From the NCBI RefSeq assembly GCF_013366925.1, contig NZ_JAALDK010000001.1, positions 6,508,001 through 6,572,000 of the forward strand: a stretch of DNA of 64,000 bases. The letters run 5' to 3'. Below the pieces are notes generated by a model. It saw only the letters and a program-made list of their open reading frames with translations, did no database searches and was not told the DNA's origin. The DNA is from Paraburkholderia youngii (lineage in GTDB: Bacteria > Pseudomonadota > Gammaproteobacteria > Burkholderiales > Burkholderiaceae). The stretch's first letter is position 1, and each line of letters starts with the position of its first letter. Below, piece by piece: positions 47,722 to 64,000 of the stretch. A program made the translations under genes and the position numbers.

Positions 47722-48062
47722 CGTTTCTCCTTCATTTCCTGTTGTCTTTTTCGCGTTGCCTGCATCAGGATTTCGAATCGCTGTTCAGCCGGAACGCCGG
47801 GCTTGTGCAGCCATGCTATGACCTCCGGAATCCAGTAAAACCCCGGCGTGGTTGCTTCCACGTACAGGAAATCGACTATCGGCCCGTCATGTGTAAAACG
47901 GAGCATCCTTGTCTGCGCAAAGGCCCCATCAAGCCGGTCGCGCAAGGTCGGATCATTGGCCAGCGCGGGATAATCGCGCACGATATGACCGCAGATAAAG
48001 TCCACGTAGTTGCGGTCTTCATAGGCTTTCAGAAGCGCCCATTGTCCTTCGGTAAATTCCAT
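47718..48062 (-). CDS. small T6SS-cassette protein of unknown function
   Basis: Protein of 114 aa starting MEFTEGQWALLKAYEDRNYVDF and containing VIAWLHKPGVPAEQRFEILMQ. The C-terminus is strongly basic/acidic helical (ATRKRQQEMKEKR). I do not recognise a named family. It lies between a DUF4123 adaptor and the toxin, overlapping the first by 44 bases and the second by 4. It is therefore translated with them and may help load the toxin. A truncated copy is present at 45907. Confidence 0.7.
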   Translation of the reverse strand: MEFTEGQWALLKAYEDRNYVDFICGHIVRDYPALANDPTLRDRLDGAFAQTRMLRFTHDGPIVDFLYVEATTPGFYWIPEVIAWLHKPGVPAEQRFEILMQATRKRQQEMKEKR

Positions 48063-48552
48063 TGTCGTCGATGGTGAACCGTCGTCCTTCGTTGAGGTAG
48101 TGCCACGCGTCGGCAGCCCTGAAAAGCTCACGCTCGCTCTTGCCGCGGCATACCGCATCGAGCGCATGCAACACCCTTGGGTCCCAGAAGCGCAGCAGGG
48201 CCGACCGTCCTTTTGGTATTCGGGTATGCAGGTGCGGGCGCAGCTTTGCGGCCTGCCGCTCAAGGCTCTCTGCGGTACTCAGCCAGATCACGCCAGGGCG
48301 GGCCTGTTCGAGTTCGCGCAGGTCCGCAATAAACTCGCGCGCCATCTTCGGATCAAGCAGCCACGGCCCCGCGTGTGCGAGTGCCATCTCGTGCGTTCCC
48401 GCGAACAGCGAAACCGCCCGATCGGTTTCGGCCGTGAGTTGCTGGCCGGTATGCTGCTGGTACTGGATACCGTCCACCAGCGCCAGCACGTGGCCGCTGT
48501 AGCGCCGTTGCCCGTACTGGCGAAGCTGTTCATTGACAGAGGCGGGCATCAT
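48019..48552 (-). CDS. DUF4123 T6SS effector adaptor/chaperone
   Basis: Protein of 177 aa with the DUF4123 pattern: VLALVDGIQY near residues 22-31, GPWLLDPK in the middle, LRPHLHTRIPKGRSALLRFWDPRVLHAL in segments. DUF4123 proteins bind an effector and hand it to its VgrG spike. No vgrG gene is visible in the window; it may lie elsewhere. ATG at 48552 overlaps the preceding stop (TGATG). Confidence 0.8.
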   Translation of the reverse strand: MMPASVNEQLRQYGQRRYSGHVLALVDGIQYQQHTGQQLTAETDRAVSLFAGTHEMALAHAGPWLLDPKMAREFIADLRELEQARPGVIWLSTAESLERQAAKLRPHLHTRIPKGRSALLRFWDPRVLHALDAVCRGKSERELFRAADAWHYLNEGRRFTIDDNGIYRRTMGASESL

Positions 48553-48911
48553 CAGCGCTCCAGGGTCATCGCACCTTGCCCGGCAGCGCGGATCATGCAA
48601 TCGAGACAGATAGACGACTGCGGAAGCACCGGCCGGGGCGTTGCGCCGTAGCCCGATGACGGGCCTTTTTTCTGTGGAGTATCCGGAGAGCGTCCGCGAC
48701 AATTGCATGCCCATCCGTAACCCAGGGCTTCGGCCATCTCATAGCCGGTTGCATACGACTTCAAACTATCGAACGGAAACCATTCGCCGGTTTCAGCGTT
48801 CAGCGCCATTGCCGACGGCATTGGCGGGAAGTTTGAGTAGAGGGAATAGGTGATACGACAAAGCTGGCACTCTTCCATGCCCCGGGTTTCATCCTGCTTC
48901 TGTTTTTCCAT
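48552..48911 (-). CDS. cysteine-rich protein of unknown function
   Basis: Protein of 119 aa, first gene of the cassette. It has three cysteine pairs: C15/C18 (CQLC), C69/C71 (CNC) and C102/C105 (CLDC), suggesting a metal-binding fold. It has no signal peptide and I do not recognise the family. Translational overlap with the DUF4123 gene implies a joint role. ATG at 48911 follows AGAGGTCAG. Confidence 0.7.
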   Translation of the reverse strand: MEKQKQDETRGMEECQLCRITYSLYSNFPPMPSAMALNAETGEWFPFDSLKSYATGYEMAEALGYGWACNCRGRSPDTPQKKGPSSGYGATPRPVLPQSSICLDCMIRAAGQGAMTLER

Positions 48912-51193: not shown

Positions 51194-51199
51194 AGATCG

Positions 51200-52483
51200 A
51201 TGGCTTTGCACTTTACGAAAGGGACCGCCCGGGGGGCGGCCCTTTTTCTCTTTGCGAGTTTCTTCCTCACGGCCTGCGGCCCCAAGGAAGAGGCGATCAG
51301 CACCGCAGCCGCCGCGACACCCCCCGCGGCAACTTCCGCAGCGCCTTCCAACAAGGACATGGCCGAGATCGGCAAGTTGGCCTTTTTCGATCCGTCGCTG
51401 TCGGCGTCGGGCCGGCAGTCGTGTGCGAGCTGTCACAGCCCTGATCGTGCCTATGGGCCGCCCAATGGCCTCGCCGTGCAACCGGGCGGCGCCGATATGA
51501 AGCACTACGGCACGCGTGCCGTGCCATCGCTGCGCTATCTGCGGCGCGTGCCGATCTGGACGCACACGTATGCGAGCAGCGCCAAGGAACGCATGGAGGA
51601 TGGCGACAACATGCCTTCCGGCGGCTACACCTGGGATGGGCGCTTCGACCGTCCGGCAGACCAGGCCGCGTTCCCGCTTTTGAATCCGGACGAGATGGCC
51701 AACGCGGACGCTGCCGCGGTCGCGAGCAGATTGAGCAGGAGCGCTTACGCTGCGCGTTTCCGTGCCGTGTTCGGTCAAGACATCTTCTCGCGTCCGGCCG
51801 ACGCCCTCGCAGCGCTCGGCAAGTCGCTGGAGCGCTTCCAGTTCGACGATCCGAGCTTTCAGCCGTTCGACAGCAAGTTCGATCGCGTGCTGGACGGCAA
51901 GGCGCAGTTCACTACGCAGGAGGCGCGGGGCTTCAGCCTGTTCGTCGATCCCGAGCGAGGCAACTGCGCGTCGTGTCACCTGGTCGACAAGGGCGCGGCC
52001 GGTGCGCATCCGACGCTTTCCGACTACAACTTCCAGACACTGGGCGTGCCACGCAACCCGGAGATTCCGGCCAACGCCGATCCGAAGTACTACGACCTGG
52101 GTTTGTGCGGCCCGATGCGGACCGACAAGACCGACAACAAGTGGTACTGCGGCATGTTCAGAACGCCCACGCTGCGCAACACCGCAACCCGCCAGGTGTT
52201 TTTCCATAACGGCCGCTTACACACGCTCGAAGATGCTTTGCGCTTTTACGTGCAACGCGACACGAACCCGGGCAAGTGGTATCCGCATGCCGGTGGCAAG
52301 CAGCAGTTCGACGACCTGCCAGTGCAATACCAGAGCAACGTCGACCATCGCACCGCGCCGATGACGAATCACAAAGGCGGCAAGCCGGTCTGGTCGGACA
52401 GCGATATCCGCGACGTGATCGCCTTTCTGGAGACATTGAATGACAGCGACGCAGAGGCGAACAAAAAGGTCGCAGCGCATTGA
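51200..52483 (+). CDS. di-haem cytochrome c peroxidase / MauG-like lipoprotein
   Basis: Protein of 427 aa. Lipoprotein signal FFLTACGP (Cys 26). Two CxxCH haem motifs: C75-x-x-C78-H79 (SCASCHSPDRAYG) and C256-x-x-C259-H260 (NCASCHLVDKG). Other features of the family include PSLSASGRQSC and TPTLRNTATRQVFFHNG near residues 325-340. It reduces peroxide with electrons from cytochrome c, in the periplasm. ATG at 51200 is 6 bases after the phosphoesterase stop. The hairpin that should end that gene lies inside its first 16 codons. Confidence 0.88.
   Translation: MALHFTKGTARGAALFLFASFFLTACGPKEEAISTAAAATPPAATSAAPSNKDMAEIGKLAFFDPSLSASGRQSCASCHSPDRAYGPPNGLAVQPGGADMKHYGTRAVPSLRYLRRVPIWTHTYASSAKERMEDGDNMPSGGYTWDGRFDRPADQAAFPLLNPDEMANADAAAVASRLSRSAYAARFRAVFGQDIFSRPADALAALGKSLERFQFDDPSFQPFDSKFDRVLDGKAQFTTQEARGFSLFVDPERGNCASCHLVDKGAAGAHPTLSDYNFQTLGVPRNPEIPANADPKYYDLGLCGPMRTDKTDNKWYCGMFRTPTLRNTATRQVFFHNGRLHTLEDALRFYVQRDTNPGKWYPHAGGKQQFDDLPVQYQSNVDHRTAPMTNHKGGKPVWSDSDIRDVIAFLETLNDSDAEANKKVAAH
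51219..51249 (+). terminator. intrinsic-terminator-like hairpin inside the cytochrome gene
   Basis: AAGGGACCGCCC followed by GGG and GGGCGGCCCTTTTTCTCTTT: a stem with a single bulged A and a five-T tract. It overlaps codons 7-17 of the cytochrome gene. It may terminate the phosphoesterase transcript or attenuate the downstream gene. Confidence 0.6.
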
Positions 52484-52696: not shown

Positions 52697-54454
52697 TCAG
52701 AACTGCCCCGTCACCTGGAATCCGAGCGTCACGCGCGCAGTTGGAAAGCCGGATGGTTTATAGATGGGCGTAGCTGCAAAGAGGTCGCAGGCAACCGCAC
52801 CTGTCTTTGCCGATGCGCTGCCGCGCACACCGATCACCGCGCCCGCGAGTTGGGTACCGGCGAGAAATGCGGTGTTCGGCCCGAACACGCGGCCGTAGTC
52901 GATACCGGCATAAGCGGCCTGGCCCGTCGAGCCGACCGGTAGCTGAAGCTCGTTGCGCCAGAAGAAACCGCGCTCGGCCGCGAGCATCGTTTCGCCGTCG
53001 AAGCCGCGCACCGTGTAGCGGCTGCCGATGGTCAGGTCATCGATATAGTTGAGCGTGTTGTTCGTGAACTGTCCGTGAACGCTTGTCACGTAACGTAGCG
53101 TCTGGTTCGCGATCTGGAACGGCACCGACAGGTTCGCGTCGAGCAGGGCCATGTGGAAGCGATAGGTCGGGCCATTCTCGTAGAAGTCTGGTGTCGCCCC
53201 AAGTCCGCCCACACCCTGACGGTAAGCGAGACTGCCGTCGAACTGCGACGCGCCGAAGTAGTGACGGTCGGTAAGCCCCGCCTCGATGAATGTGTTGTTG
53301 CGCCGCTGCTGCGGGATAGCGGTGTCTTCAATAAAGCTTTCGCCGAAGCGCTTTGTGAGCCTCAACTGCGCGCCGAGTACGTTGTTCCGGCTGCGCATCA
53401 ATACCCGCTGTAGCCTGAAGTCCACTGTCTGAGAATTGCCACTCGACACGAAAGTCGTGTTGACGCCCGCGATCTGCTGGTAATACGTGTTCGTATAGGC
53501 TGACAGCGTGCCGGTCCAGTAGCCCCACGGAATCGAATAGGAACCGTTCCAGCCGTGCGAACCGAGACCTTTGTCGCCGAATTCGAGGTCCTGACTCACG
53601 CCGACATTGAAAATGTCGTTCAGCCCGAGCGGATTGTCGATGCCCAGGCTCAGGTTGCCTTGCAGCTTGCCGGTGGCCCGCGTGCCTGAGTTGTCCACCG
53701 AGGCGACCACCGTCCACGGCTTCACGCGCTTTACCGTAACGACAATATCGCTTTCGCCAGGTACATCAGTTGGCTCGATTTTCATGTCCATGTCCTGGCT
53801 GCTGACGCGCTTCATCTGTTCGAGCCCCTGTTCGAGGTCGCGCAGGTTCAGCAGATCACCCTCGCGGGCCGGGAAGGCAGTTTTCCACGTACCGCGCGTG
53901 GCAGGTTCAGCGAAGCGGATCGCACGCACAACACCCGGCACCAGCGCGAACTTCAGCGCGCCGGTAGAGAGGTCCTGCTCGGGCAGCAACACGCGCGTGG
54001 TGATGTAGCCCCGGCTCAGGATGACCTGTTGCAGTCCCTTTGTGAGCATGTCGAGTCCCGCCTTGCCGACGCGTTGCCCCGTGTAGTGGTCGAGCCATTC
54101 GCGGGCGAACGCGAAGCGGTCGAGCGGCAACGCGGATGCGCCTTGCGAGCGCACGGCATCAGGCAGTGTCGCAGGTACATCGAGAACGAACGAATCGATG
54201 CGGAAGCACGGCGTTTCAGCCGGCAGATCAGGCCAGCCAGAGGCGCGCTCAACCGTCGAACGCACCGAGGGTGCATTGACAGTGACGTTGCGTTCCTGCG
54301 CATTGCGTTGCTGCTCGACCTGCTGGTTCTGATCGGCGTTGGCACGTGCCGCTGCTGCTTTGTCCGCTGGTGTGAGCGTCGACGTCTGCTGCGCATGGGC
54401 GAGCGTTATCAGGGCTGTCAGCGGCAATGCCGCCAGCCTTTTGCGGATTTTCAT
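52697..54454 (-). CDS. cdiB: CdiB/FhaC-type two-partner secretion pore (TpsB)
   Basis: Outer-membrane transporter of 585 aa (ShlB/FhaC/HecB family) that exports CdiA. Signal peptide 1-21 (TALITLAHAQ), N-terminal helix and linker, POTRA domain(s) at about 75-230 (FRIDSFVLDVPATLPDA ... GYITTRVLLPEQDLSTGAL), then the beta barrel. The barrel contains the family motif SRYTVRGFDGE near residue 470 and ends in a terminal Phe (FQVTGQF) as outer-membrane barrels do. It lies downstream of cdiA and its immunity array, the Burkholderia-type order. Confidence 0.92.
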   Translation of the reverse strand: MKIRKRLAALPLTALITLAHAQQTSTLTPADKAAAARANADQNQQVEQQRNAQERNVTVNAPSVRSTVERASGWPDLPAETPCFRIDSFVLDVPATLPDAVRSQGASALPLDRFAFAREWLDHYTGQRVGKAGLDMLTKGLQQVILSRGYITTRVLLPEQDLSTGALKFALVPGVVRAIRFAEPATRGTWKTAFPAREGDLLNLRDLEQGLEQMKRVSSQDMDMKIEPTDVPGESDIVVTVKRVKPWTVVASVDNSGTRATGKLQGNLSLGIDNPLGLNDIFNVGVSQDLEFGDKGLGSHGWNGSYSIPWGYWTGTLSAYTNTYYQQIAGVNTTFVSSGNSQTVDFRLQRVLMRSRNNVLGAQLRLTKRFGESFIEDTAIPQQRRNNTFIEAGLTDRHYFGASQFDGSLAYRQGVGGLGATPDFYENGPTYRFHMALLDANLSVPFQIANQTLRYVTSVHGQFTNNTLNYIDDLTIGSRYTVRGFDGETMLAAERGFFWRNELQLPVGSTGQAAYAGIDYGRVFGPNTAFLAGTQLAGAVIGVRGSASAKTGAVACDLFAATPIYKPSGFPTARVTLGFQVTGQF

Positions 54455-54584: not shown

Positions 54585-54869
54585 TTATTCCTTTTTCTTC
54601 GCTGCCGTTGCCCCGAGGAACGCGCAGAATGCCAGTGCCGCTGCAATCCCGGCTGGAGCAAAAAATCCCGGCACTGTAAAAATTATTGCCGATATCGTTT
54701 TGATCGCAGGTACGACGCCGAATTTAAAACCCGCAATTAAAAACATCAGCGCATAAATAGCAGTTAGGGTGAGGAAAAATACTTTCCAAAACGTGTACCG
54801 CCCAAGCCAACGCGAAATGGCTGGTCCAAGCAGGCCACCAAAGATGCCCCTCCAGAAACCGTCAATCAC
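54585..54869 (-). CDS. small membrane protein, putative CDI immunity protein 1
   Basis: Protein of 94 aa with two or three hydrophobic segments (FWKVFFLTLTAIYALMFLIA, then VPGFFAPAGIAAALAFCAFL) and a basic tail (AKKKE). The first 22 residues, DGFWRGIFGGLLGPAISRWLG, are very similar to those of the gene at 55078 (DGFWSGVFGGLFGSAVMRWA). GTG start at 54869 with GAGGAG 7 bases upstream. It stands between the displaced cdiA-CT at 55380 and cdiB, where immunity genes are expected. Function is inferred from position and membrane character. Confidence 0.65.
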   Translation of the reverse strand: MIDGFWRGIFGGLLGPAISRWLGRYTFWKVFFLTLTAIYALMFLIAGFKFGVVPAIKTISAIIFTVPGFFAPAGIAAALAFCAFLGATAAKKKE

Positions 54870-54896
54870 TGTTAGCTCCTCATCACTTGCTATCAG

Positions 54897-55031
54897 TTAC
54901 CAACCAATCCGTGAAGAGATGATCTTTACAACCAAGGGTCCAAATAAGATCACTCCGACAATCAATCCAAATATTTGGCACGCAAATTTCTGCTCCGATG
55001 TCATTTTTTTCTTCACCAGTTGCAAGGGCAT
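54897..55031 (-). CDS. 44-aa membrane peptide, putative
   Basis: Open frame of 44 codons, starting ATG at 55031 and ending TAA at 54897. A basic N-terminus (MPLQLVKKKMTSEQK) is followed by one hydrophobic segment (CQIFGLIVGVILFGPLVVKII) and the end SSRIGW. Composition and location between two membrane proteins suggest a real small gene. Ribosome-binding site is weak (AAGTGAAG). I do not recognise it. Confidence 0.45.
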   Translation of the reverse strand: MPLQLVKKKMTSEQKFACQIFGLIVGVILFGPLVVKIISSRIGW

Positions 55032-55077
55032 AGGAACTTCACTTTCGTTGATTTAAACGAGCAGGCTGGCAGTCGGA

Positions 55078-55365
55078 TCACTCTTTCTTCTCCGCGTCAA
55101 ACGTTGCACATACAAACACACACAGAACCGCCAGCAGACCTATGCCCATCGGCACCAAGAGACCTATCGGTGTAAAAGTAAACTCTTGCAATCGGGCGAG
55201 AGCCGCAGGGCCGCCGACATCCACCAGATCCTGTACGAACGAAAAGATATACACCGCAATTGTCACAATGAGGAATATCGTCGTATACCGATACTTCCTG
55301 GCCCAGCGCATGACTGCTGAACCAAAAAGTCCGCCAAAGACGCCGCTCCAGAAACCATCAAACAT
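55078..55365 (-). CDS. small membrane protein, putative CDI immunity protein 2
   Basis: Protein of 95 aa from ATG at 55365 (an upstream start at 55383 would add six residues). N-terminus MFDGFWSGVFGGLFGSAVMRW matches the gene at 54585. Hydrophobic segments are TIFLIVTIAVYIFSFVQDL and IGLLVPMGIGLLAVLCVFVC; the tail is AEKKE. It starts about 15 bases downstream of the stop of the displaced cdiA-CT at 55380, the usual distance for a cdiI gene. Membrane location would fit a membrane-acting toxin. Confidence 0.7.
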   Translation of the reverse strand: MFDGFWSGVFGGLFGSAVMRWARKYRYTTIFLIVTIAVYIFSFVQDLVDVGGPAALARLQEFTFTPIGLLVPMGIGLLAVLCVFVCATFDAEKKE

Positions 55366-55379
55366 AAGCGCCTCCCAAA

Positions 55380-56669
55380 TCACTGACTCAAGTTATGTTG
55401 CTGGACCGCGCTCTGCGCCGCCTTACCAGCAGTTTGGCTCAAAGCAAGTCCATTTGCCTGGATAACAAAGCCAGGAACCGTGGCAACATTCTTTGCCGAA
55501 TTTGCGACACCCGCCCAGCTAAACATCGATGTTTTGAACATGCCGTTAATGGCACCGAAGGTCGAAGCAGCGGCGAGTCCCGGTGCGGAAAAGCGTTCAT
55601 TGAAACTTGCGCCGAAGTCTTGGCCACCTTTGTAGTCCCTGTAGGCTCCATATGCAGCTGATGCTGTATATAGCCCGCCTGAACTCGTCGCTCCAGTCAG
55701 CGCACCGGTTGTCAGCGAATATGCAGCCTGAGCGGCTTTATATGCGGCGAACGCCTCGGGACCGAGAGCGATTGCGGCGGCGGCACCCGCGGCCAGTCCG
55801 ACAGCCGCTCCTGTTTGGGCGACGTTATCTGCGGCTGCGCCAGAGAGTTCCCCTTGTGCCTGGATCACAGCATTCAGCATTGCATCACTGCACTGCGCGC
55901 CGGCCCCACAAACCTGAGAAATTAGGTCCTTCTTCTTCTGATGAAGCATCTGGTTGTACAACTCGACGTTCGACGCCGTGGCCGCGCCTGCGGTGCCGCC
56001 GACGAGTACACCTCCGACGCCCGCCGCTACGTTCGCAGCGAGGTTGCCGAGCAGTTCCGAGCCCGTTTCTGATGCTACACCCTTCGAAAGGCTCTCAAGC
56101 TGCGCCGCCACCTTCGACGACAGGCCCGCCCCGGCAGCACCACCGATAGCCCCGAACGCGCTGCCGCCACCAAGGCCACCAATCAGCGCACCACCCGCCG
56201 CGTGCAGCAGCGCGCGGTTGTCGCCACCCTCGGCCCACGCGGCCTCTCCGGCCGCGTCACCGGCCTTCTGCGCCGCCTCCAGCTTTGATTCAGCATACGC
56301 GCCGATGCCTTGCGATACCGTCTGGCCCGCCGCCTGCGCGGCCTGCATCGTGTCGGCCTGCTGGTTCAGGATCGCGTTCACGTCCGGCGTTTTCGCAACC
56401 TTGCCGTTCGTGTTCGTTGTATCGCGCGACAGGTTCGCCACGTCCTGCGTCTGGCCCGCGCTGTTCGTCACGTTGATCGTGCCCGCGCTGATCGCGCTGC
56501 GCGTGGTTGCGCTCTCGTCGCCGCTTTCGTGCTGCGAGATCATCGGCGATACGCCCGGATGGCCGCTCACCGAACCTGGGCCAACCGCCTTGTTGGTGTT
56601 ACTACCGAAGCCCACGCCCGCACTGATACCGTTGCTGGTCGCGGCGTAGTGCGACTGGTTCTGGATATC
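55380..56669 (-). CDS. displaced cdiA-CT module 3 with hydrophobic toxin region
   Basis: A cdiA 3' fragment of about 430 codons with no start of its own. The left part repeats the CdiA pretoxin region (SGIGAYAESKLEAAQKAGDA, GGALIGGLGGGSAFGAIGGA) up to the NVELYN motif (55970-55953), the Burkholderia-type CT boundary. After it come about 190 residues with KKKDLISQVCGAGAQCSDAM, then a long Ala/Gly-rich hydrophobic stretch (AAVGLAAGAAAAIALGPEAF) and GLAAASTFGAINGMFKT. This suggests a membrane-inserting toxin. Junction with the upstream immunity gene is at 56668-56672. Confidence 0.72.
   Translation of the reverse strand, partial: DIQNQSHYAATSNGISAGVGFGSNTNKAVGPGSVSGHPGVSPMISQHESGDESATTRSAISAGTINVTNSAGQTQDVANLSRDTTNTNGKVAKTPDVNAILNQQADTMQAAQAAGQTVSQGIGAYAESKLEAAQKAGDAAGEAAWAEGGDNRALLHAAGGALIGGLGGGSAFGAIGGAAGAGLSSKVAAQLESLSKGVASETGSELLGNLAANVAAGVGGVLVGGTAGAATASNVELYNQMLHQKKKDLISQVCGAGAQCSDAMLNAVIQAQGELSGAAADNVAQTGAAVGLAAGAAAAIALGPEAFAAYKAAQAAYSLTTGALTGATSSGGLYTASAAYGAYRDYKGGQDFGASFNERFSAPGLAAASTFGAINGMFKTSMFSWAGVANSAKNVATVPGFVIQANGLALSQTAGKAAQSAVQQHNLSQ
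55953..55970 (-). other. LYN-type cdiA-CT boundary motif, module 3
   Basis: Codons for N-V-E-L-Y-N. Burkholderia CdiA proteins carry an (E/Q)LYN motif at the start of their variable CT, and this one fits that form. Confidence 0.75.
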
Positions 56670-56943
56670 AAGGAGAGGTCTTGTCCAGGTTCATGAGCCG
56701 ATGTGCAACAGTTCTGGTATGCACTTCATCGCCATCGAGACCAATGTGCTTGACCTCAACCCATCTGAGGTAGTCGTACAACTCGTCGACTGTTTTCTCC
56801 TCTCGAAGCATACGACTAATATCCTGGACGTATGAGTCGTATTCATCGTCCGCTTCCGGTGAATCGCCAACGCCAATGGGATCCCACTCCTTGAGCAGGA
56901 CCTTTTTTACGTCCAGATCCAAACCAATAAACGTTCTCTTCAT
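56668..56943 (-). CDS. DUF1871-like immunity protein
   Basis: Protein of 91 aa, acidic. LLKEWDPIGVGDSPEADDEY is the DUF1871-type block (residues 16-35), followed by VDELYDYLRWVEVKHIGLDG. It starts 3 bases after the stop of the DUF4258-like toxin module, so it is that module's immunity gene. The stop codon TGA lies exactly at the junction with the next cdiA piece. The last residues (NLDKTSP) may therefore be foreign and the protein slightly truncated. A fragment with IGLDGDE also occurs at 59806-59880. Confidence 0.7.
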   Translation of the reverse strand: MKRTFIGLDLDVKKVLLKEWDPIGVGDSPEADDEYDSYVQDISRMLREEKTVDELYDYLRWVEVKHIGLDGDEVHTRTVAHRLMNLDKTSP

Positions 56944-56946
56944 TTT

Positions 56947-58722
56947 TCAGGGTGCTCCGGGGATTACTGTGACGACCAGCCCAGTCTTTGAATTCGTGAC
57001 CACCCGAACGTTGTTCACCGGATCATAGTATCCGGTTGTTCCGGGACGCGTAGGGTAGTTAACACCGTTTGCAATAGTGTTTTGCACCACTGAAGGCGGC
57101 ACACCTCGACCCTGCATCTGGTCCATTGCATGAGCGGAGTAATCAACTCCGCCAATTGTAGCGGGCGCATTTGTCCCACGTGGCACGTCCATTGGACTAC
57201 CGCTGACTCCCACAGGTGTACTCGGGTCCTTAGCACCCTTGCCAGCCGCTGCCGCCCCCGCAGCCAGCGCTGTCGAAGGCACGGTCGCGGCCTGGGTACC
57301 CGCTGGCACTTTGGCACCTGCCTGTCCCAGCATCGCGCGCTCCTTGTCGAGCGCCTGCTTCAGTTCCTGCGCCTCCTTCTTCGCCTCGGTGTCGTTCTTG
57401 TCGTTCGCGGCGTTGTACAGGTTCACGTTCGATGCCATCGCCGCGCCCGCCGTGCCACCAACCGCTGCGCCCGCAAGACCCGACGCAATATTCCCCGCCA
57501 GATTGCCGATCAGCGACGAACCGGCCGCACCCGATACCGAATCGCTGAGTCCCTTCATCTGGTCAGCCAGTTTCGAAGAAATCGCCGCGCCTGCTGCGCC
57601 GCCCACCGCACCGAACGCACCGCCACCCAGGCCACCGATCAACGCACCGCCCGCGAGGTGCAGGCCCGCTCTGGCATCGCCTCCCTCACTCCACGAATCG
57701 AAGTCTGCCAGCGCTGCCGACGCGCCTTCGAGGTCGCCATTCTTGTAGGCTGCTTTCGCCGCATCAAGCGCTTCATCACGCTTCATGTCCGCATACGCGC
57801 CGATGCCTTGCGATACCGTCTGACCCGCCGCCTGCGCGGCCTGCATCGTGTCGGCCTGCTGGTTCAGGATAGCGTTCACGTCCGGCGTTTTCGCAACCGT
57901 GCCGTTCGTGTCCGTCGTGTCGCGCGACAGGTTCGCCACGTCCTGCGTCTGGCCCGCACCGTTCGTCACGTTGATTGCGCCTGCGCTGATCGCGCTGCGC
58001 GTTGTTGCGCTCTCGTCGCCGCTTTCGTTCTGCGAAATCATCGGCGATACGCCCGGTGTGCCACTCACAGAACCCGGACCCGTTGTCTTGCCGGTGTTGC
58101 CTACGCCTACGCCTGCACTGACACCGTTGCTGTTGGCGCTGTAGTGCGACTGGTTCTGGATGTCGCTGAAGGTGAGCGTGCCGGTCGTCAGGCTGTTGTT
58201 CGACGCGTCGGCCGTGCTCGATATCACTCCGCCCGTCAGGTCCGTGTTGCCCTTGACGTTGATGTTGAACCCGCCATCTCCCGCATTGATGCCAGCCTGT
58301 TCGTTGACACCTGCATAGTTTGAATCGGCATGGCCGTTCTGCGCGCTGAAGCTGGCGCTGCCGCCGCCCTGGCTGATTGTGAACCCGCCGCCCGTGCTGC
58401 TCTGGTGCGCGGCGCTGTTCGTCACATCCTGCACACTCACGATATTCAGGTTGCCGCCCACGTCAGCCGCGATCTGCCTGCCGTTGATCTGCGAGCCGAT
58501 GATGTTCGTATCGCCGCCCGATATCACCGTGACGCTGTTCGCGCCGTTCACATGTGACGCGTTCTGGATCGACGCGTCGCTGTTCGCGTCGCCATGCGCG
58601 TTCGACATCGCCGCCGAGACGCCAAAGCCGCCGCCGAGCGTGTACTGCACACCAACGCTTGCACTGCTGGAGCTGTTCGAGCTACGCGTCGAATCGGTGT
58701 CGGTCGTGTTGATGACGTTCAC
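56947..58722 (-). CDS. displaced cdiA-CT module 2 with DUF4258-like toxin
   Basis: Frame of 591 codons equal to the 3' region of the main cdiA; its first Met is an internal position, so it lacks start and export signals. It carries haemagglutinin-type repeats, the glycine-rich pretoxin, NVNLYN at 57429-57412, then about 55 residues shared with the main CT. The unique C-terminus follows: YSAHAMDQMQGRGVPPSVVQ, NTIANGVNYPTRPGTTGYYD and VNNVRVVTNSKTGLVVTVIP. This resembles DUF4258/RelE-like RNase folds. It is likely silent unless recombined into cdiA. Confidence 0.75.
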   Translation of the reverse strand: MNVINTTDTDSTRSSNSSSSASVGVQYTLGGGFGVSAAMSNAHGDANSDASIQNASHVNGANSVTVISGGDTNIIGSQINGRQIAADVGGNLNIVSVQDVTNSAAHQSSTGGGFTISQGGGSASFSAQNGHADSNYAGVNEQAGINAGDGGFNINVKGNTDLTGGVISSTADASNNSLTTGTLTFSDIQNQSHYSANSNGVSAGVGVGNTGKTTGPGSVSGTPGVSPMISQNESGDESATTRSAISAGAINVTNGAGQTQDVANLSRDTTDTNGTVAKTPDVNAILNQQADTMQAAQAAGQTVSQGIGAYADMKRDEALDAAKAAYKNGDLEGASAALADFDSWSEGGDARAGLHLAGGALIGGLGGGAFGAVGGAAGAAISSKLADQMKGLSDSVSGAAGSSLIGNLAGNIASGLAGAAVGGTAGAAMASNVNLYNAANDKNDTEAKKEAQELKQALDKERAMLGQAGAKVPAGTQAATVPSTALAAGAAAAGKGAKDPSTPVGVSGSPMDVPRGTNAPATIGGVDYSAHAMDQMQGRGVPPSVVQNTIANGVNYPTRPGTTGYYDPVNNVRVVTNSKTGLVVTVIPGAP

Positions 58723-58852
58723 CTGGTTTTTCGCCGCCAGAATGACATCGTTCGCGCTGACATCGAGCCGGCGATAGTCAGGTCGCCATTCGTTGCCACG
58801 AATCCCGCCGTGCCGCTTGCCTGCACGCTGGAGCCGCGTTGCAACGTCTGAT
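57241..58852 (-). repeat. direct repeat of the cdiA 3' region, copy 2
   Basis: About 1.6 kb nearly identical to 61271-62880. Differences seen: a 6-base insertion near its left end, scattered substitutions, and one missing base near 58761 (GACATCGAG against GACGTTCGAG) that breaks the frame further upstream. It provides a long tract for homologous recombination with cdiA. Confidence 0.88.
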
Positions 58853-58868
58853 AGATATAGTCCAAAGA

Positions 58869-59123
58869 CTATGAGCTCAATCGAGGTCTGTTGATCAAAT
58901 CAAGCAAGCTCTCCAGTTCTAGGCCATACTCGTTCGGCTCAAAGTTCGGCAATATGCCTTCCATCATGAACTCGGCGTTGATGAGCCCACAAAGCGCACC
59001 ATTCTCCGAGAAAGTCATTTCTCCCTTTTCCAGGTTATCGAACGCCGCTGCGTTCTTCCCTGCGTCTTTGACACGCAAGCTGCTCACGATTTGCTTCTGA
59101 CGATCATTTAGTGCCAATTTCAT
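58869..59123 (-). CDS. orphan immunity-like protein
   Basis: Protein of 84 aa starting MKLALNDRQKQIVSSLRVKD, ending LLDLINRPRLSS. Acidic, no membrane segment, helical. No toxin gene is intact next to it; upstream there is only a short frame (VLGVMWLPHEVQVQRESG) that might be the tail of one. The cdiA fragment of module 2 begins 17 bases after its stop. I do not recognise the family; the immunity role is inferred from context. Confidence 0.5.
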   Translation of the reverse strand: MKLALNDRQKQIVSSLRVKDAGKNAAAFDNLEKGEMTFSENGALCGLINAEFMMEGILPNFEPNEYGLELESLLDLINRPRLSS

Positions 59124-59198
59124 TTCCCGACTCCCGCTGCACTTGTACCTCATGCGGTAACCACATTACCCCGAGGACCTGGGCCGCTAACGCTACAT

Positions 59199-59230
59199 AC
59201 AACAAATCCGGCTAACGCCGGGTTTGTTGT
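59199..59230 (-). terminator. hairpin after the CdiI_4-like gene
   Basis: 14-bp stem ACAACAAATCCGGC (59199-59212) and GCCGGGTTTGTTGT (59217-59230) with a TAAC loop and one T-G pair. On the minus strand it ends in TTTGTTG, so it could stop transcription coming from the immunity gene at 59238. Confidence 0.65.
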
Positions 59231-59237
59231 TTATACA

Positions 59238-59468
59238 TCAGCTATTCATGCCCATCATTTTCCCGGCAGTCTTCAATGATTCCGGGTGAACCCTCTGCTG
59301 CTTGTCAAGAACGCAAGTCAGCAGTTCATAAGCCACTCCATACTCACCGAACTCAATATATTCAGCAACGTCGTTGCAATCTTGCTCAGAGATCTCTCTC
59401 TCAACCTGCACAAGAGCTTCACGCATCAATCGCTCAATCTCATCATAAGGGTCTGGTTGCTTCGTCAT
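59238..59468 (-). CDS. MafI/CdiI_4-like immunity protein
   Basis: Protein of 76 aa. The pattern IERLMREALVQVEREISEQD, DVAEYIEFGEYGVAYELLT is like the MafI/CdiI_4 family, which protects against EndoU-type toxins. It starts 4 bases before the end of the EndoU remnant at 59465, an ATGA-like overlap. It is complete, whereas the toxin partner is truncated. Predicted cytosolic. Confidence 0.72.
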   Translation of the reverse strand: MTKQPDPYDEIERLMREALVQVEREISEQDCNDVAEYIEFGEYGVAYELLTCVLDKQQRVHPESLKTAGKMMGMNS

Positions 59469-59749
59469 TTCGGATTTCTGGGAACATTTGTTGGGAACGC
59501 CGTAACGATTCCACCGCCTTTACTAGCTGGCTCGATAACCACACGAATGGCGATGCCATCGACAGAGCCATTTTTAACTATTCTGCCGTTGGCTTGAACC
59601 GTTTCAGGAACGGGCGGATCTGTGGTGATATCTGAAACAGCACTCATGATCTTCGACGATGACCAATCCTGTGGAAACACTGACTTACCAAGACCACCTG
59701 GCCATTGATGACCGCCGCCCGTTGCGTCTCCAGTCAGTATATGAGTCGG
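59465..59749 (-). pseudogene. EndoU nuclease domain remnant (cdiA-CT)
   Basis: The minus frame from 59749 reads PTHILTGDATGGGHQWPGG, then GKSVFPQDWSSSKIMSAVSD and, at the end, IRVVIEPASKGGGIVTAFP and NVPRNPK. This is the C-terminal EndoU ribonuclease domain seen in CdiA-CT and Maf toxins, including the catalytic-type His (HIL, GGGH). There is no start and no connection in frame to the piece of cdiA (FSDSVSGATGSS) just upstream. It is an inactive leftover. Confidence 0.75.
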
Positions 59750-59880
59750 ACGAACCGGTCGCGCCCGATACCGAGTCGCTGAACGCCTTCATATCGTCGG
59801 CCGGGCGCCCAGCAATTGTTGTCGTAATTTGCTGAGCATGCTGCTCGTCACCATCAAGCCCGATGCGCTCCGCCGGACCT
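59750..59880 (-). pseudogene. mosaic of immunity and cdiA pretoxin fragments
   Basis: One frame reads ELGPAERIGLDGDEQHAQQI then TTTIAGRPADDMKAFSDSVS and GATGSS. The first part resembles the end of the DUF1871-like protein at 56668 (KHIGLDGDEVHTRTVAHRL). The second part resembles the pretoxin segment DQMKGLSDSVSGAAGSS of cdiA. It therefore marks two recombination joints within 130 bases, just before the EndoU remnant. Confidence 0.6.
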
Positions 59881-60325
59881 AACTCAGACCGTCAACGCTA
59901 CGAGCGTTTTGCCATTGATCTACCGAATGCTTCGCGGCAAAGAATTTTTGAAGCTGAACAGGATCACGCTCCAGAATTCCAACGTAATGCTGATAGTCAT
60001 TAACCAAGGCGTCATAGCCGATAAAGGCGGTAATACCAAATGCCCCCATCAACGCTTGGTAGTCACGAACCTGCCCCGTCAAACATATCTGCCATGCAGG
60101 AAGGCCTGAATCCGCGATCGCAAATAGATTGCTTGGCATCCAGTAAGGGGCCATTCCGTCCGGACACACCAGAAAGTCGACACGACTGAATCGGAACATC
60201 AAGCCGTAGACGATGTACTCGTCGCCAACTTTTAGCGGTGCAAATTCTGTCCTATCCGTTTCACCGAGGCACCGCGCGCTCTCTGGAAGACTTGCACCTG
60301 TATTCGATCGACAAAGAATGCGCAT
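59879..60325 (-). CDS. immunity-like protein of an orphan CT module
   Basis: Protein of 148 aa from ATG at 60325 (MRILCRSNTGASLPESARCL). Further marks are VGDEYIVYGLMFRFSRVDFL and WMPSNLFAIADSGLPAWQIC. The order after a toxin end, the overlapping start and the soluble, slightly acidic composition suggest a cdiI gene. I recall similar proteins next to polymorphic toxins but cannot name the family. The end VDGLS is at 59879, directly beside the mosaic fragment. Confidence 0.6.
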   Translation of the reverse strand: MRILCRSNTGASLPESARCLGETDRTEFAPLKVGDEYIVYGLMFRFSRVDFLVCPDGMAPYWMPSNLFAIADSGLPAWQICLTGQVRDYQALMGAFGITAFIGYDALVNDYQHYVGILERDPVQLQKFFAAKHSVDQWQNARSVDGLS

Positions 60326-60588
60326 AGTTCGCACTTGAATTTGAAATCGTCAATGGCACCGGAGTTGATATTCCGGACGTAGTGAATCTCGACACCATTC
60401 ACGTTTTGCGACATTTTCACCCAAGCATCGGCAGCCGGCCACCGAGAATCGCCCAAGGGAATAGGCAACTGTACTCCTGCCGTGGGATTCGACATTGCCT
60501 GTTCAAGAGCCAGTTGTTCCTGGAGGCTGTTAGGGACGGCCCGTCCAGTAGACCCAAGGCCGAGGGGTGCGTTGTTTGCGGCAACAAA
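60232..60588 (-). pseudogene. toxin C-terminus fragment (orphan cdiA-CT)
   Basis: The frame opens after a stop at 60589 with FVAANNAPLGLGSTGRAVPN and continues with SLQEQLALEQAMSNPTAGVQ, then RWPAADAWVKMSQNVNGVEI and HYVRNINSGAIDDFKFK. This reads as the last 85 residues of a secreted polymorphic toxin. After DFKFK the frame continues for 31 codons into the immunity gene, so the natural stop seems lost. There is no start codon or pretoxin region. Confidence 0.6.
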
Positions 60589-60631
60589 TCATGGGTACAG
60601 ACGTTGGTTAGGATGCTCTTCGTCGAGCTCA

Positions 60632-60958
60632 TTAGCCTGTCATTTGCGGGGCCGTCACAATAAAGACATCGTGAACTGGGGTCTCTGAGCGAATGAACTC
60701 GGCCGCGGCTAGATTGTTTTGTTCCGCGGCACCAACGTCCACGGGCGGATCGACTCCGTCCCAAATGCAATCGAGCCTCGCTTCGAATCCGGGAGAATGC
60801 CAAATACCTCCCTCGATCCTAGCGATAACCAAGCCGTGTTGAGCAGCCCGTTCGCAAACCGCAATCGCTGCATCGGAGGACAGCCTCATCACAATGCTTC
60901 CACCGAACGAGAAAAAGTCATCCGATGAATCGTAGCGTCGTTGGAGATCAATCTTCAT
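60632..60958 (-). CDS. cdiI: CdiI, colicin-E5-type immunity protein
   Basis: Protein of 108 aa. From residue 24 on, MRLSSDAAIAVCERAAQHGL and IEGGIWHSPGFEARLDCIWD resemble the immunity protein of colicin E5 (MKLSPKAAIEVCNEAAKKGL ... GGHWLNPGF). The protein ends EFIRSETPVHDVFIVTAPQMTG. It starts 6 bases after the cdiA stop and so is the cognate immunity gene. In the E5 family the immunity protein blocks the tRNA anticodon pocket of the toxin. It has an N-terminal extension of 23 residues. Confidence 0.85.
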   Translation of the reverse strand: MKIDLQRRYDSSDDFFSFGGSIVMRLSSDAAIAVCERAAQHGLVIARIEGGIWHSPGFEARLDCIWDGVDPPVDVGAAEQNNLAAAEFIRSETPVHDVFIVTAPQMTG

Positions 60959-60964
60959 CGCAAC

Positions 60965-63900
60965 TCACTTCCAGTTAATTCGACTATCGGGAATCCAGCC
61001 CGGATCGTTCTTACCGCTCGCCTGGACAACTTCGCCGGTCCGGTCGTTGACCACAACGTAGCCGCTCTTCGACCCATAAACGGATGCGGGATCATTTCTA
61101 GACAACCCATCGGGCGTTTTCCCTGCAGATCGATTATCCATCGTCGTTCCCACAGGTCCTTCATTGACCACCGCTTGTACCTCTTGCGGCGTCCATCCCC
61201 GAGCCTCAAGTTGGCCACCAATCTTGCCGTCGATAATAACCTTGCCCGTGTTTGTGGCCTTCGCTCCATTGCCAGCCGCCCCCGCAGCCAGCGCTGTCGA
61301 AGGCACGGTCGCGGCCTGGGTACCCGCTGGCACTTTGGCACCTGCCTGTCCCAGCATCGCGCGCTCCTTGTCGAGCGCCTGCTTCAGTTCCTGCGCCTCC
61401 TTCTTCGCCTCGGTGTCGTTCTTGTCGTTCGCGGCGTTGTACAGGTTCACGTTCGATGCCATCGCCGCGCCCGCCGTGCCACCAACCGCTGCGCCCGCAA
61501 GACCCGACGCAATATTCCCCGCCAGATTGCCGATCAGCGACGAACCGGCCGCACCCGATACCGAATCGCTGAGTCCCTTCATCTGGTCAGCCAGTTTCGA
61601 AGAAATCGCCGCGCCTGCTGCGCCGCCCACCGCACCGAACGCACCGCCACCCAAGCCACCGATCAACGCACCGCCCGCGAGGTGCAGGCCCGCTCTGGCA
61701 TCGCCTCCCTCACTCCACGAATCGAAGTCTGCCAGCGCTGCCGACGCGCCTTCGAGGTCGCCATTCTTGTAGGCTGCTTTCGCCGCATCAAGCGCTTCAT
61801 CACGCTTCATGTCCGCATACGCGCCGATGCCTTGCGACACCGTCTGACCCGCCGCCTGTGCAGCCTGCATCGTGTCGGCCTGCTGGTTCAGGATCGCGTT
61901 CACGTCCGGCGTTTTCGCAACCGTGCCGTTCGTGTCCGTCGTGTCGCGCGACAGGTTTGCAACGTCCTGCGTCTGGCCCGCACCGTTCGTCACGTTGATC
62001 GCGCCTGCGCTGATCGCGCTGCGCGTTGTTGCGCTCTCGTCGCCGCTTTCGTTCTGCGAAATCATCGGCGAGACGCCCGGTGTGCCACTCACAGAACCCG
62101 GACCCGTTGCCTTGCCGGTGTTACCACCGAAGCCCACGCCTGCACTGATACCGTTGCTGTTGGCGCTGTAGTGCGACTGGTTCTGGATATCGCTAAACGT
62201 GAGCGTGCCGGTCGTCAGGCTGTTGTTCGACGCGGCGGCCGTGCTCGATATCACGCCGCCCGTCAGGTCCGTGTTGCCCTTGACGTTGATGTTGAACCCG
62301 CCATCTCCCGCATTGATGCCGGCCTGTTCGTTGACACCTGCATAGTTTGAATCGGCATGGCCGTTCTGCGCGCTGAAGCTGGCACTGCCGCCGCCCTGGC
62401 TGATTGTGAACCCGCCGCCCGTGCTGCTCTGGTGTGCGGCACTGTTCGTCACATCCTGCACACTCACAATATTCAGGTTGCCGCCCACGTCGGCCGCGAT
62501 CTGCCTGCCATGGATCTGCGAGCCGATGACGTTCGTGTCCCCGCCCGATATCACCGTGACGCTGTTCGCGCCGTTTACATGCGAAGCATTCTGGACTGAC
62601 GCGTCGCTGTTCGCATCGCCATGCGCGTTCGACATCGCCGCCGAGACGCCGAAGCCGCCGCCGAGCGTGTACTGCACGCCAACGCTTGCACTGCTGGAGC
62701 TGTTCGAATTGCGCGTCGAATCGGTGTCGGTCGTGTTGATGACGTTCACCTGGTTTTTCGCCGCCAGAATGACATCGTTCGCGCTGACGTTCGAGCCGGC
62801 GACAGTCAGGTCGCCATTCGTTGCCACGAATCCCGCCGTGCCGCCTGCCTGCACGCTGGAGCCCCGCTGCGTCGTCTGATCTTCCGACGACTGGCTTTCG
62901 CTTTTGCTCGATCCGATGCTGACCTTGATGCCGATGTCGGGCTTGCCACCATCGGCCAGGGTTTTCGCCCCCATACCCGCTATCGCCACATCGCCCGCCG
63001 CCGCAATGCTATGCAGCGCAGCCGCACGGTCATTGCCCGTGCTGGTCGAATTCTTCGCCGCCTGACTTTCCGAATACGCGTTGTTGATCGCATCGCCGAC
63101 CGAACCCGCCAGACCAATCGTGAGGCCGCTGCTGCTGGTCTTCTGCGTCTGCGCCTGGTGCGAGGTATCGGTGGCCGCGTCGATGATGACGTTCGCCGCC
63201 GTGCCAGCGAGGTTCCTGCCTGCGACAAGATCGCTACCGGTGACGTGCAGGGTGTTGCCCGCCTGGATCGACAGGTCGCCGTTCAGCGAGCCGACCGTGC
63301 TCGCGTTGTTCGTGACACCCGATGCCTCACTGGTCGTCGCGAGCTTGTTGGTGCCGACCGTCACGCTCAGGCCGCTCGTCCCCAGGCCCGTGCGCGTCTC
63401 CTCATAGCTGCTGGACGACTGCATGGTGTCCTGTGACGTCGTGATATCCACGTCATGCGCAGCACTGAGCGCGACATCGTTCGTGCCGACAATCGTGCTG
63501 CCCTTGACGTTGATGTCGTTGCCACTGGCGATAGTCACGGCGTCTGCCGAAACCAGGCTGCCCTGCGAGAGCGTGGCGGTGGTGTGGCTCGAACTCGCCA
63601 CATCCTTGCCGCTCACGATATTGCTGTGGCTGTGCTGTTCCTGCGAATTGTCGACATAGGTCGCGGTGGCCGCACCGATGTTGACGTTGTTCGCCGCCGC
63701 CAGCGTCGCCGTCCCCTGGTCGAGACTGATCGCGCTGCCGATGAGGTTGAGGTCGTGGCCCGATGCGACGGTCAGTGAATCTCCGGCATGGAGCGTCGTC
63801 CCTGTCAGGGTATCGGCCGAGGTATGCTGCGACGCTGAATAGCTGACGTGGCTATCGCTACCGGAACTGCTGCTGTCGACGGTAGAGTTCGCCTTCGCCG

Positions 63901-64000
63901 CCTGGAGCGTGACGTCGCCGTTCGCCGCAACCGCCCCGCCACCGCCCAGGTTGATATCAGCGCCCGTCGCGGTCAGGTTGCCGCCCACGCCGATCTGCGA
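60965..64000 (-). CDS. cdiA: CdiA, contact-dependent inhibition exoprotein, C-terminal part (5' end outside window)
   Basis: At least 1,011 codons are present; the gene continues past the right edge. Haemagglutinin-type beta-helix repeats (DINVKGSTIVGTNDVALSAA, NLIGSAISLDQGTATLAAA) are followed by the Gly-rich pretoxin and the NVNLYN boundary at 61453-61436. The CT ends in a colicin-E5-like tRNase domain (IIDGKIGGQLEARGWTPQEV, KTPDGLSRNDPASVYGSKSG, YVVVNDRTGEVVQASGKNDP). Colicin E5 cleaves the anticodon of tRNAs for Tyr, His, Asn and Asp. It is exported by CdiB and delivered on contact. Confidence 0.9.
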   Translation of the reverse strand, partial: SQIGVGGNLTATGADINLGGGGAVAANGDVTLQAAKANSTVDSSSSGSDSHVSYSASQHTSADTLTGTTLHAGDSLTVASGHDLNLIGSAISLDQGTATLAAANNVNIGAATATYVDNSQEQHSHSNIVSGKDVASSSHTTATLSQGSLVSADAVTIASGNDINVKGSTIVGTNDVALSAAHDVDITTSQDTMQSSSSYEETRTGLGTSGLSVTVGTNKLATTSEASGVTNNASTVGSLNGDLSIQAGNTLHVTGSDLVAGRNLAGTAANVIIDAATDTSHQAQTQKTSSSGLTIGLAGSVGDAINNAYSESQAAKNSTSTGNDRAAALHSIAAAGDVAIAGMGAKTLADGGKPDIGIKVSIGSSKSESQSSEDQTTQRGSSVQAGGTAGFVATNGDLTVAGSNVSANDVILAAKNQVNVINTTDTDSTRNSNSSSSASVGVQYTLGGGFGVSAAMSNAHGDANSDASVQNASHVNGANSVTVISGGDTNVIGSQIHGRQIAADVGGNLNIVSVQDVTNSAAHQSSTGGGFTISQGGGSASFSAQNGHADSNYAGVNEQAGINAGDGGFNINVKGNTDLTGGVISSTAAASNNSLTTGTLTFSDIQNQSHYSANSNGISAGVGFGGNTGKATGPGSVSGTPGVSPMISQNESGDESATTRSAISAGAINVTNGAGQTQDVANLSRDTTDTNGTVAKTPDVNAILNQQADTMQAAQAAGQTVSQGIGAYADMKRDEALDAAKAAYKNGDLEGASAALADFDSWSEGGDARAGLHLAGGALIGGLGGGAFGAVGGAAGAAISSKLADQMKGLSDSVSGAAGSSLIGNLAGNIASGLAGAAVGGTAGAAMASNVNLYNAANDKNDTEAKKEAQELKQALDKERAMLGQAGAKVPAGTQAATVPSTALAAGAAGNGAKATNTGKVIIDGKIGGQLEARGWTPQEVQAVVNEGPVGTTMDNRSAGKTPDGLSRNDPASVYGSKSGYVVVNDRTGEVVQASGKNDPGWIPDSRINWK
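61271..62880 (-). repeat. direct repeat of the cdiA 3' region, copy 1
   Basis: The part of the main cdiA that recurs at 57241-58852. It covers the last haemagglutinin repeats, the pretoxin, the LYN motif and the first half of the CT, and stops about 300 bases before the cdiA stop, exactly where the toxin domain begins. Confidence 0.88.
61436..61453 (-). other. LYN-type cdiA-CT boundary motif, main cdiA
   Basis: Codons for N-V-N-L-Y-N. It fits the Burkholderia-type CT boundary, although the sequence in fact diverges from module 2 only some 55 residues later. Confidence 0.75.

What the first reader, a model, noticed from the sequence alone, without database searches (positions are those of the whole stretch)
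54585..60958. Array of displaced cdiA-CT/immunity modules between cdiA-cdiI and cdiB
Between the stop of cdiA and cdiB there are at least four toxin pieces (fragment with DFKFK end, EndoU remnant, DUF4258-like, hydrophobic CT) and six or more immunity-type genes, all on the same strand. Orphan modules are known downstream of enterobacterial cdiBAI loci. Here they lie inside a Burkholderia-order cdiA-I-B locus, so a recombination event between pretoxin copies could swap the active toxin while keeping cdiB in the unit. The immunity genes are more intact than the toxins, as expected if they protect against sister strains.
Basis: partly seen in the sequence, partly recalled or inferred. Interest (0 to 1): 0.8.

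Follow-up and report, generated by a model that had tools for sequence, protein, structure and literature searches.

The report
Stacked spare toxin tips before cdiB
Between a bacterial weapon gene (cdiA) and its exporter gene (cdiB) lies a stack of old toxin tips and their antidotes; each tip still in place is the working tip of the same kind of weapon in a related species, and relatives show a mobile DNA element that carries such tips.

Summary
On the minus strand, cdiA (colicin-E5 RNase tip) and its immunity gene are followed by four displaced toxin domains, each with its own immunity gene, plus an orphan immunity gene, then cdiB. All four displaced toxins are C-termini of single-ORF, 2719-3192-aa CdiA in other species of the genus, with the matching immunity gene next door. 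Such arrays recur: 24 of 63 surveyed Burkholderiaceae cdiA-cdiB intervals hold displaced cdiA 3' fragments, although two primary papers report or assume none for this gene order (one review mentions them). The window shows a trace of recombination: cdiA and the CT5 module are almost identical exactly next to the toxin. Relatives show a likely vehicle that my paper searches did not list: a ~7-kb element with primase and XerC-like recombinase whose left end is a toxin tip plus immunity gene. It is stacked nine deep between cdiA and cdiB in one genome, sits once in an unrelated gene with exact ends, and lies behind CdiA or Rhs genes in Paraburkholderia, Pseudomonas, Enterobacter and E. coli. The window keeps only a 45-bp end-like scar, after the EndoU module; in the survey the element's ends are rare. 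Expression and toxin activity are untested.

The parts
60965..64000 (-). cdiA 3' part (whole ORF 2739 codons, runs past the window); CT1 colicin-E5 RNase tip 60968-61273, entry domain 61274-61435, pretoxin 61436-62065
   Evidence: Pfam Colicin_E5 3.4e-33 and Fil_haemagg_2; full ORF read with L005
60632..60958 (-). Imm1, colicin-E5 immunity of the active tip
   Evidence: Pfam ImmE5 1.1e-11
60334..60588 (-). CT2, displaced 'DFKFK' toxin domain without pretoxin/entry part
   Evidence: 90% to the C-terminus of a 2766-aa CdiA ORF in L190
59879..60325 (-). Imm2
   Evidence: 82-83% to the gene next to that CdiA in L190
59749..59802 (-). pretoxin sliver in front of CT3 (MKAFSDSVSGATGSS)
   Evidence: 83% DNA match to window 57515-57568
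59468..59752 (-). CT3, displaced EndoU toxin domain
   Evidence: PF14436 2.7e-11; 92% to the C-terminus of a 2853-aa CdiA ORF in L193
59238..59468 (-). Imm3, MafI-like immunity gene
   Evidence: NF033691 4e-6, below cut-off; 65-93% to genes beside EndoU tips or fragments in eight loci (L052 has no EndoU hit)
59189..59233 (-). hairpin, scar-like left end (LE) of the primase-XerC element
   Evidence: nhmmer 27 bits, E 1.4e-6; dG -24.8, z -5.9; motif once in 9.49 Mb; LE starts 8-17 bp after Imm3 in 6 of 8 relatives with Imm3, not in L055, L194; L191 and L193 were among the copies the model was built from
59120..59146 (-). last codons of the lost toxin of Imm4 (TSAAGVGK*)
   Evidence: same end as the displaced toxin in L067
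58869..59123 (-). Imm4, orphan immunity gene
   Evidence: 79-83% to L067, L195, L196
56947..58852 (-). module 4: cdiA FHA/pretoxin/entry copy (57251-58852) plus CT5 DUF4258-like toxin (56947-57249); frame broken in the FHA part
   Evidence: 96.6% DNA over 1606 bp to cdiA 61275-62880; CT5 93% to the C-terminus of a CdiA ORF of at least 2719 aa (cut by the stretch) in L209
56668..56943 (-). Imm5
   Evidence: 91% to L209, 96% to L065
55380..56690 (-). module 5: older pretoxin copy plus CT6 hydrophobic toxin (55380-55952)
   Evidence: CT6 77% to 2760-aa and 2965-aa CdiA ORFs in L212, L213
55078..55365 (-). Imm6a, membrane-type immunity gene
   Evidence: 81% to the gene after the CT6 CdiA in L212
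54897..55031 (-). 44-aa ORF, uncertain
   Evidence: no match in the fetched loci
54585..54869 (-). Imm6c, paralogue of Imm6a
   Evidence: 37% to Imm6a; 53% in L212, where that copy has stops
52697..54454 (-). cdiB
   Evidence: Pfam ShlB 2.2e-96, POTRA_2, POTRA_3

Best explanation
The stretch is a stack of displaced cdiA tips. Each time this lineage took up a new toxin-immunity pair at the end of cdiA, the older pair was pushed downstream, towards cdiB, and kept there as a headless fragment with its immunity gene. Shown: each of the four remaining toxins is the live tip of a full-length CdiA elsewhere; pairs stay in order; cdiA and module 4 exchanged sequence recently next to the toxin. Inferred: displacement happened by recombination in the pretoxin region and, at least for the EndoU module, with the primase-XerC element whose left end is the toxin tip; the immunity genes protect against relatives that still use the old tips; recombination between cdiA and module 4 could bring CT5 back and would delete what lies between.
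For: Cross-matches to full-length CdiA with neighbouring immunity. Survey: 24 of 63 intervals hold displaced cdiA fragments; in the 75 intervals before filtering, 85 of 85 CT hits and 686 of 686 pretoxin hits are on the sense strand, controls downstream of cdiB 0 of 73 and 2 of 73. Mosaic: 51 substitutions in 1607 bp between cdiA and module 4, only 2 in the last 507 bp (P 9e-7), where four to six third-party loci differ by 16-49%. Solitary immunity 20 against solitary toxin 2. Element: nine tandem units between cdiA and cdiB in G034, ectopic copy with exact ends, scar after Imm3.
Against: No expression or activity data. The window has no primase, no XerC and no right end; four of five module joints show no element trace. 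In the survey, long end sequences (>=90 bp) occur in only 3 of 24 positive and 1 of 39 negative intervals (P 0.15), so the element is not shown to be the general cause. Order of displacement cannot be read from divergence: module 4, not the module next to cdiA, is the freshest copy.
Confidence: 0.85

Rival explanations
1. The array grew only by homologous recombination and unequal crossing-over in pretoxin sequence; the primase-XerC element is a bystander that likes the same loci.
For: Module 4 carries 1.6 kb of cdiA homology and shows recent exchange; element ends are rare in the survey; V. cholerae T6SS arrays are explained by displacement with homologous recombination (abstract and section list of PMC5361080).
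Against: CT2 and CT3 have almost no upstream homology left; the LE-like scar follows Imm3 as LE does in 6 of 8 relatives; element boundaries put the toxin tip inside the element.
Confidence: 0.35
2. The small genes are accessory CDI genes (BcpO-like) or unrelated ORFs, not immunity genes.
For: Imm2, Imm4, Imm5, Imm6 match no curated immunity family at cut-off; an extra small ORF, BcpO, does lie between bcpI and bcpB in Burkholderia (PMC3415462, passages).
Against: Imm2, Imm3, Imm5 and Imm6a sit directly after the matching toxin both here and after full-length CdiA in relatives.
Confidence: 0.05
3. The repeats are an assembly artefact.
For: Several draft contigs break in or near such loci, so that requested stretches came back short.
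Against: Own genome is four contigs with the array in a 6.8-Mb contig; repeats are 96.6%, not 100%, identical; similar stacks in a two-contig genome and in complete E. coli chromosomes.
Confidence: 0.03

Closest known systems
Orphan cdiA-CT/cdiI arrays of cdiBAI loci (Poole 2011, PMC3150448, passages; P. aeruginosa PMC4725963, passages)
   Same: Headless cdiA 3' fragments with immunity genes, stacked behind the active pair.
   Different: Here between cdiI and cdiB of an A-I-B locus. Anderson 2012 (PMC3415462, passage) found no such modules in Burkholderia-type systems and Koskiniemi 2015 (PMC4364669, passage) calls that gene order correlated with their lack; a 2022 review (PMC9086364, passage) says they sometimes occur there.
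T6SS immunity arrays by sequential displacement in V. cholerae (PMC5361080, abstract and section list)
   Same: Old immunity genes kept after new effector pairs displace old effectors.
   Different: T6SS effectors, homologous recombination; no tip fused to a long carrier protein by an element with its own recombinase.
B. thailandensis bcpAIOB transposon and megacircle (PMC6350997, abstract and section list)
   Same: CDI genes on a mobile, circularising element in the same family.
   Different: A ~210-kb composite transposon with IS2-like ends carries the bcpAIOB genes; here a 7-kb element carries only the tip and immunity gene.
Toxin cassettes and polyimmunity loci (Zhang 2012, PMC3482391, passages)
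   Same: Proposed recombination of toxin-immunity cassettes; XerC/D recombinases noted beside polyimmunity loci.
   Different: No element with defined ends, primase and tandem stacking in the passages I saw.

Membership tests
Orphan cdiA-CT/cdiI array | cdiA 3' fragments without the TPS/secretion part | tested here: met
Orphan cdiA-CT/cdiI array | cognate immunity gene directly downstream | tested here: met
   4 of 4 displaced toxins
Orphan cdiA-CT/cdiI array | located downstream of a cdiBAI operon | tested here: not met
   array lies between cdiI and cdiB
Orphan cdiA-CT/cdiI array | orphan toxins toxic when expressed, immunity genes expressed | not testable with these tools
   no expression data
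Burkholderia-type CDI (cdiAIB) | gene order A-I-B | tested here: met
Burkholderia-type CDI (cdiAIB) | (E/Q)LYN motif before the CT | tested here: inconclusive
   cdiA and module 4 read NVNLYN, module 5 reads NVELYN
Burkholderia-type CDI (cdiAIB) | BcpO lipoprotein gene | not tested
   no BcpO model was searched
Colicin E5 RNase tip with ImmE5 | Pfam match above cut-off for toxin and immunity | tested here: met
   114.2 and 45.3 bits, cut-offs 25 and 25; solved colicin-E5 2.6e-30
EndoU / MafI pair | EndoU_bacteria above cut-off | tested here: met
   44.4 bits, cut-off 25.3
EndoU / MafI pair | MafI immunity above cut-off | tested here: not met
   26.5 bits, cut-off 31
DUF4258 | CT5 above Pfam cut-off | tested here: not met
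   15.6 bits, cut-off 25
Primase-XerC toxin-tip element (named here) | left end after the immunity gene | tested here: inconclusive
   45-bp match only
Primase-XerC toxin-tip element (named here) | primase, XerC and right end present in the window | tested here: not met
   no match in the window; primase nowhere in the own genome at 1e-60

The most novel reading that the evidence does not exclude
CDI and Rhs weapons are re-armed by a dedicated mobile element: a ~7-kb primase/XerC unit whose left end is itself a toxin tip plus immunity gene, in its clearest form starting at the conserved motif before the tip (D-R-F/Y-N-R-Q-L-H in CdiA, Y-Y-R-N-R-Y-Y-N-P in Rhs). Insertion there fuses the new tip in frame, brings the new immunity gene, and pushes the old pair downstream; repeats build tandem stacks. 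The window's array is a decayed stack of this kind.
Probability: 0.5. Interest if true: 0.92.

Novelty: new variant of a known kind. Interest (0 to 1): 0.74.

Why it matters
It contradicts two primary papers by which Burkholderia-type CDI loci lack orphan modules, and shows a place where their toxin diversity is stored: inside the A-I-B unit. The element in the relatives would answer an open question, how polymorphic toxins swap tips while staying in frame and immune, and could explain why the motif before the tip is conserved. It is directly testable by looking for the circular form and for new junctions.

Tried and rejected
General driver: I expected element ends in most arrays; the survey gave 3 of 24 positive against 1 of 39 negative intervals, so I dropped that claim. 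Age gradient: I expected older modules nearer cdiB; divergence does not follow position. Single target site: of 30 right-end joints extracted (one empty, two unclear), read by eye, they abut different points of cdiA (LYN, WxEGG, entry motif, FHA, toxin start, VENN) and once the cdiB start, so a single site holds only for the LYN-type units. Element in other genera of the order: primase in 7 of 399 genomes, but 0 of 10 short flanks showed a tip motif, inconclusive. The inner part of the left end is scattered in many genomes, often alone, so only its outer part was used as a scar. Sequence searches of solved structures gave nothing useful for CT2, CT3 and CT5; the CT5 hit to a designed protein (3.9e-12 over about 32 residues) I take for spurious without a test. 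The promoter scan found no sigma-70-like site in 8.7 kb on either strand (3.0 expected), uninformative at this GC. Salmonella and Providencia plasmid contexts of the element are less clear than the others, and the two Caballeronia records carry no annotation (one shows Rhs-tip motifs). No structure prediction, no large protein-database search and no viral-contig scan was run.
Full report
Where it is. The window is C1:6508001-6572000 of a 9.49-Mb, four-contig genome in a genus whose nearest named cdiB relatives are Paraburkholderia. cdiA comes in from the right on the minus strand, stops at 60965, and cdiB begins at 54454. The 6.5 kb between them is the longest of the 63 intervals compared (the 66-kb stack of G034, below, was not in that set).

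What is in it. cdiA ends in a colicin-E5 RNase tip with an ImmE5 gene behind it. Then come CT2/Imm2, CT3 (EndoU)/Imm3, orphan Imm4, module 4 (a 1.6-kb copy of the cdiA FHA, pretoxin and entry region with CT5) /Imm5, module 5 (an older pretoxin copy with CT6) /Imm6a, a 44-aa ORF and Imm6c. CT2 and CT3 begin at the entry/toxin junction but span the toxin domain of intact CdiA; the CT2 frame runs on past the relative's end. In front of Imm4 only the last codons of its toxin remain.

Are they really displaced tips? I searched 59 relatives with the whole stretch and the 144 held genomes of the genus with three pieces of the array, fetched the loci and 77 named loci by cdiB, and compared them with the modules. 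CT2 is 90% identical to the end of a 2766-aa CdiA ORF with Imm2 behind it; CT3 92% (2853 aa) and 85% (3192 aa) with Imm3; CT5 93% (2719 aa, cut by the stretch at its start) with Imm5; CT6 77% (2760 and 2965 aa) with Imm6a. CT1 itself has a 63% relative in Trinickia fusca, and Imm1 matches occur without an E5-tip match in three loci. Toxin and immunity keep their order in all four pairs. dN/dS between own pieces and relatives is low for toxins and immunity genes alike (0.03-0.30 in the comparisons with at least 70% identity), so neither shows relaxed decay; this mostly reflects the living copies.

How common is it? Of the cdiA-cdiB intervals I could read, 75 went into and 33 held displaced cdiA pieces. 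The unnamed loci were found by similarity to the window and are biased; the named ones, found by cdiB alone, give 16 of 49. No interval under 700 bp is positive (0 of 11), 9 of 15 over 3 kb are. In the 75 intervals all hits are on the sense strand (85 and 686), and same-length stretches downstream of cdiB give 0 of 73 (CT) and 2 of 73 (pretoxin; L140, L142). With 57 usable toxin-immunity pairs (75 CdiA ORFs, 70 with a neighbour ORF, 13 set aside by hand), displaced immunity matches without their toxin outnumber toxins without an immunity match 20 to 2 (18 to 2 when two split genes are merged, P 4e-4). Fractions read as intact do not differ (26 of 39, 12 of 21; P 0.58).

Trace of recombination. 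cdiA 62880-61274 and module 4 differ by 51 substitutions in 1607 positions, 49 in the first 1100 bp and 2 in the last 507 bp next to the toxin (P 9e-7). Against the four to six third-party loci alignable there, that last part differs by 16-49%, in five of six loci more than the first part (L065 about the same). The two copies therefore exchanged sequence recently, exactly where a swap of tips would cross over.

Published view. Anderson 2012 searched for such modules in Burkholderia-type systems and found none; Koskiniemi 2015 links the A-I-B order with their lack; a 2022 review states that they sometimes lie between cdiI and cdiB (passages). Nikolakakis 2012, cited there, is not held.

The vehicle in relatives. 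In L209 the CT5/Imm5 pair is followed by a CHC2/Toprim primase and an XerC-like recombinase, and the 7.0-kb unit is repeated. The left end follows the immunity gene; the right end abuts the next tip. In G034 nine primase-XerC units lie in tandem between cdiA and cdiB, with nine displaced cassettes of about six different tips. Where homology between resident cdiA and a unit was found (three of five units tested), it starts 9 bp after the right-end model, at codons D-R-F-N-R-Q-L-H, and likewise in L255. A further copy sits in an unrelated AAA/SMC-like gene; joining the flanks restores one frame with only CG shared. So toxin tip and immunity gene are the left end of the element. All 22 primase places found in 10 of 144 genus genomes (at most five scored per genome) lie at a CDI or Rhs locus in the stretches I read. 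Rhs versions start at YYRNRYYNP in L262 and L265 and further on in L264. Annotated plasmids show the same order behind tpsA2 in P. aeruginosa, hemagglutinins in two Enterobacter and an FG-GAP protein in Janthinobacterium. Two small circular records, Lonsdalea 11.3 kb and Shigella 8.8 kb, are made largely of such units, though a circle may be an assembly product of a tandem stack. By megablast of one primase-XerC stretch, 55 of 5426 complete E. coli genomes carry it, in 1-6 places, and the three I opened lie behind a long rhs gene, frameshifted in one. The listings of paper searches show no description of it; only this open-access library was searched.

Link to the window. The window has no primase, XerC or right end. 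It has a 45-bp left-end match 8 bp after Imm3; the end lies 8-17 bp after Imm3 in 6 of 8 relatives with Imm3 (not in L055, L194; L191 and L193 were among the copies the model was built from). Its hairpin motif occurs once in the genome. I take it as a scar of the element on the EndoU module, with moderate confidence. The hairpin (dG -24.8, z -5.9) also looks like a terminator, which argues against simple read-through to cdiB.

Verdict. The array is real and is a stack of displaced CDI tips; as a class it is known, in this place primary papers reported none, and it is common. The element that may build such stacks is, as far as my searches go, undescribed, and is the more surprising part; its role in this window is an inference.

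Noticed in passing
L041, L267, L259, L260 (G034 C1:1783600-1857400): 66-kb tandem stack of nine primase/XerC units with toxin tips between cdiA and cdiB.
   Followed up: yes
L261 (G034, about C1:2909930-2916920): Solitary copy of the unit interrupting an AAA/SMC-like gene, with exact ends and a shared CG.
   Followed up: yes
L296, L297, L298 (E. coli rhs region): Same primase-XerC units with SymE and HTH genes and Rhs tips behind a long rhs gene; 55 of 5426 complete E. coli genomes carry the primase-XerC stretch.
   Followed up: partly
L293 (Lonsdalea 11,289 bp), L292 (Shigella 8,758 bp): Small circular records made largely of the unit, possibly its circular form.
   Followed up: partly
L055, L061, L085, L104, L111, L134, L146, L211, L215: CdiA with ...PW(G/S)H.. 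ends (Ntox22 in the one tested, L055) and no evident immunity gene next to them.
   Followed up: partly
window 47095-48714: DUF4123 gene and Tox-REase-5 gene, T6SS-effector-like, left of cdiB.
   Followed up: no
window 49295-52207: 970-aa minus-strand ORF next to cdiB without Pfam match.
   Followed up: no
G000 C1:2100791-2106111 (L006): Second cdi locus of the same genome with a 2881-aa CdiA ORF.
   Followed up: partly
L067 and L190: The FFWSGRT toxin is the active tip in L067 and displaced in L190: reciprocal pair.
   Followed up: partly
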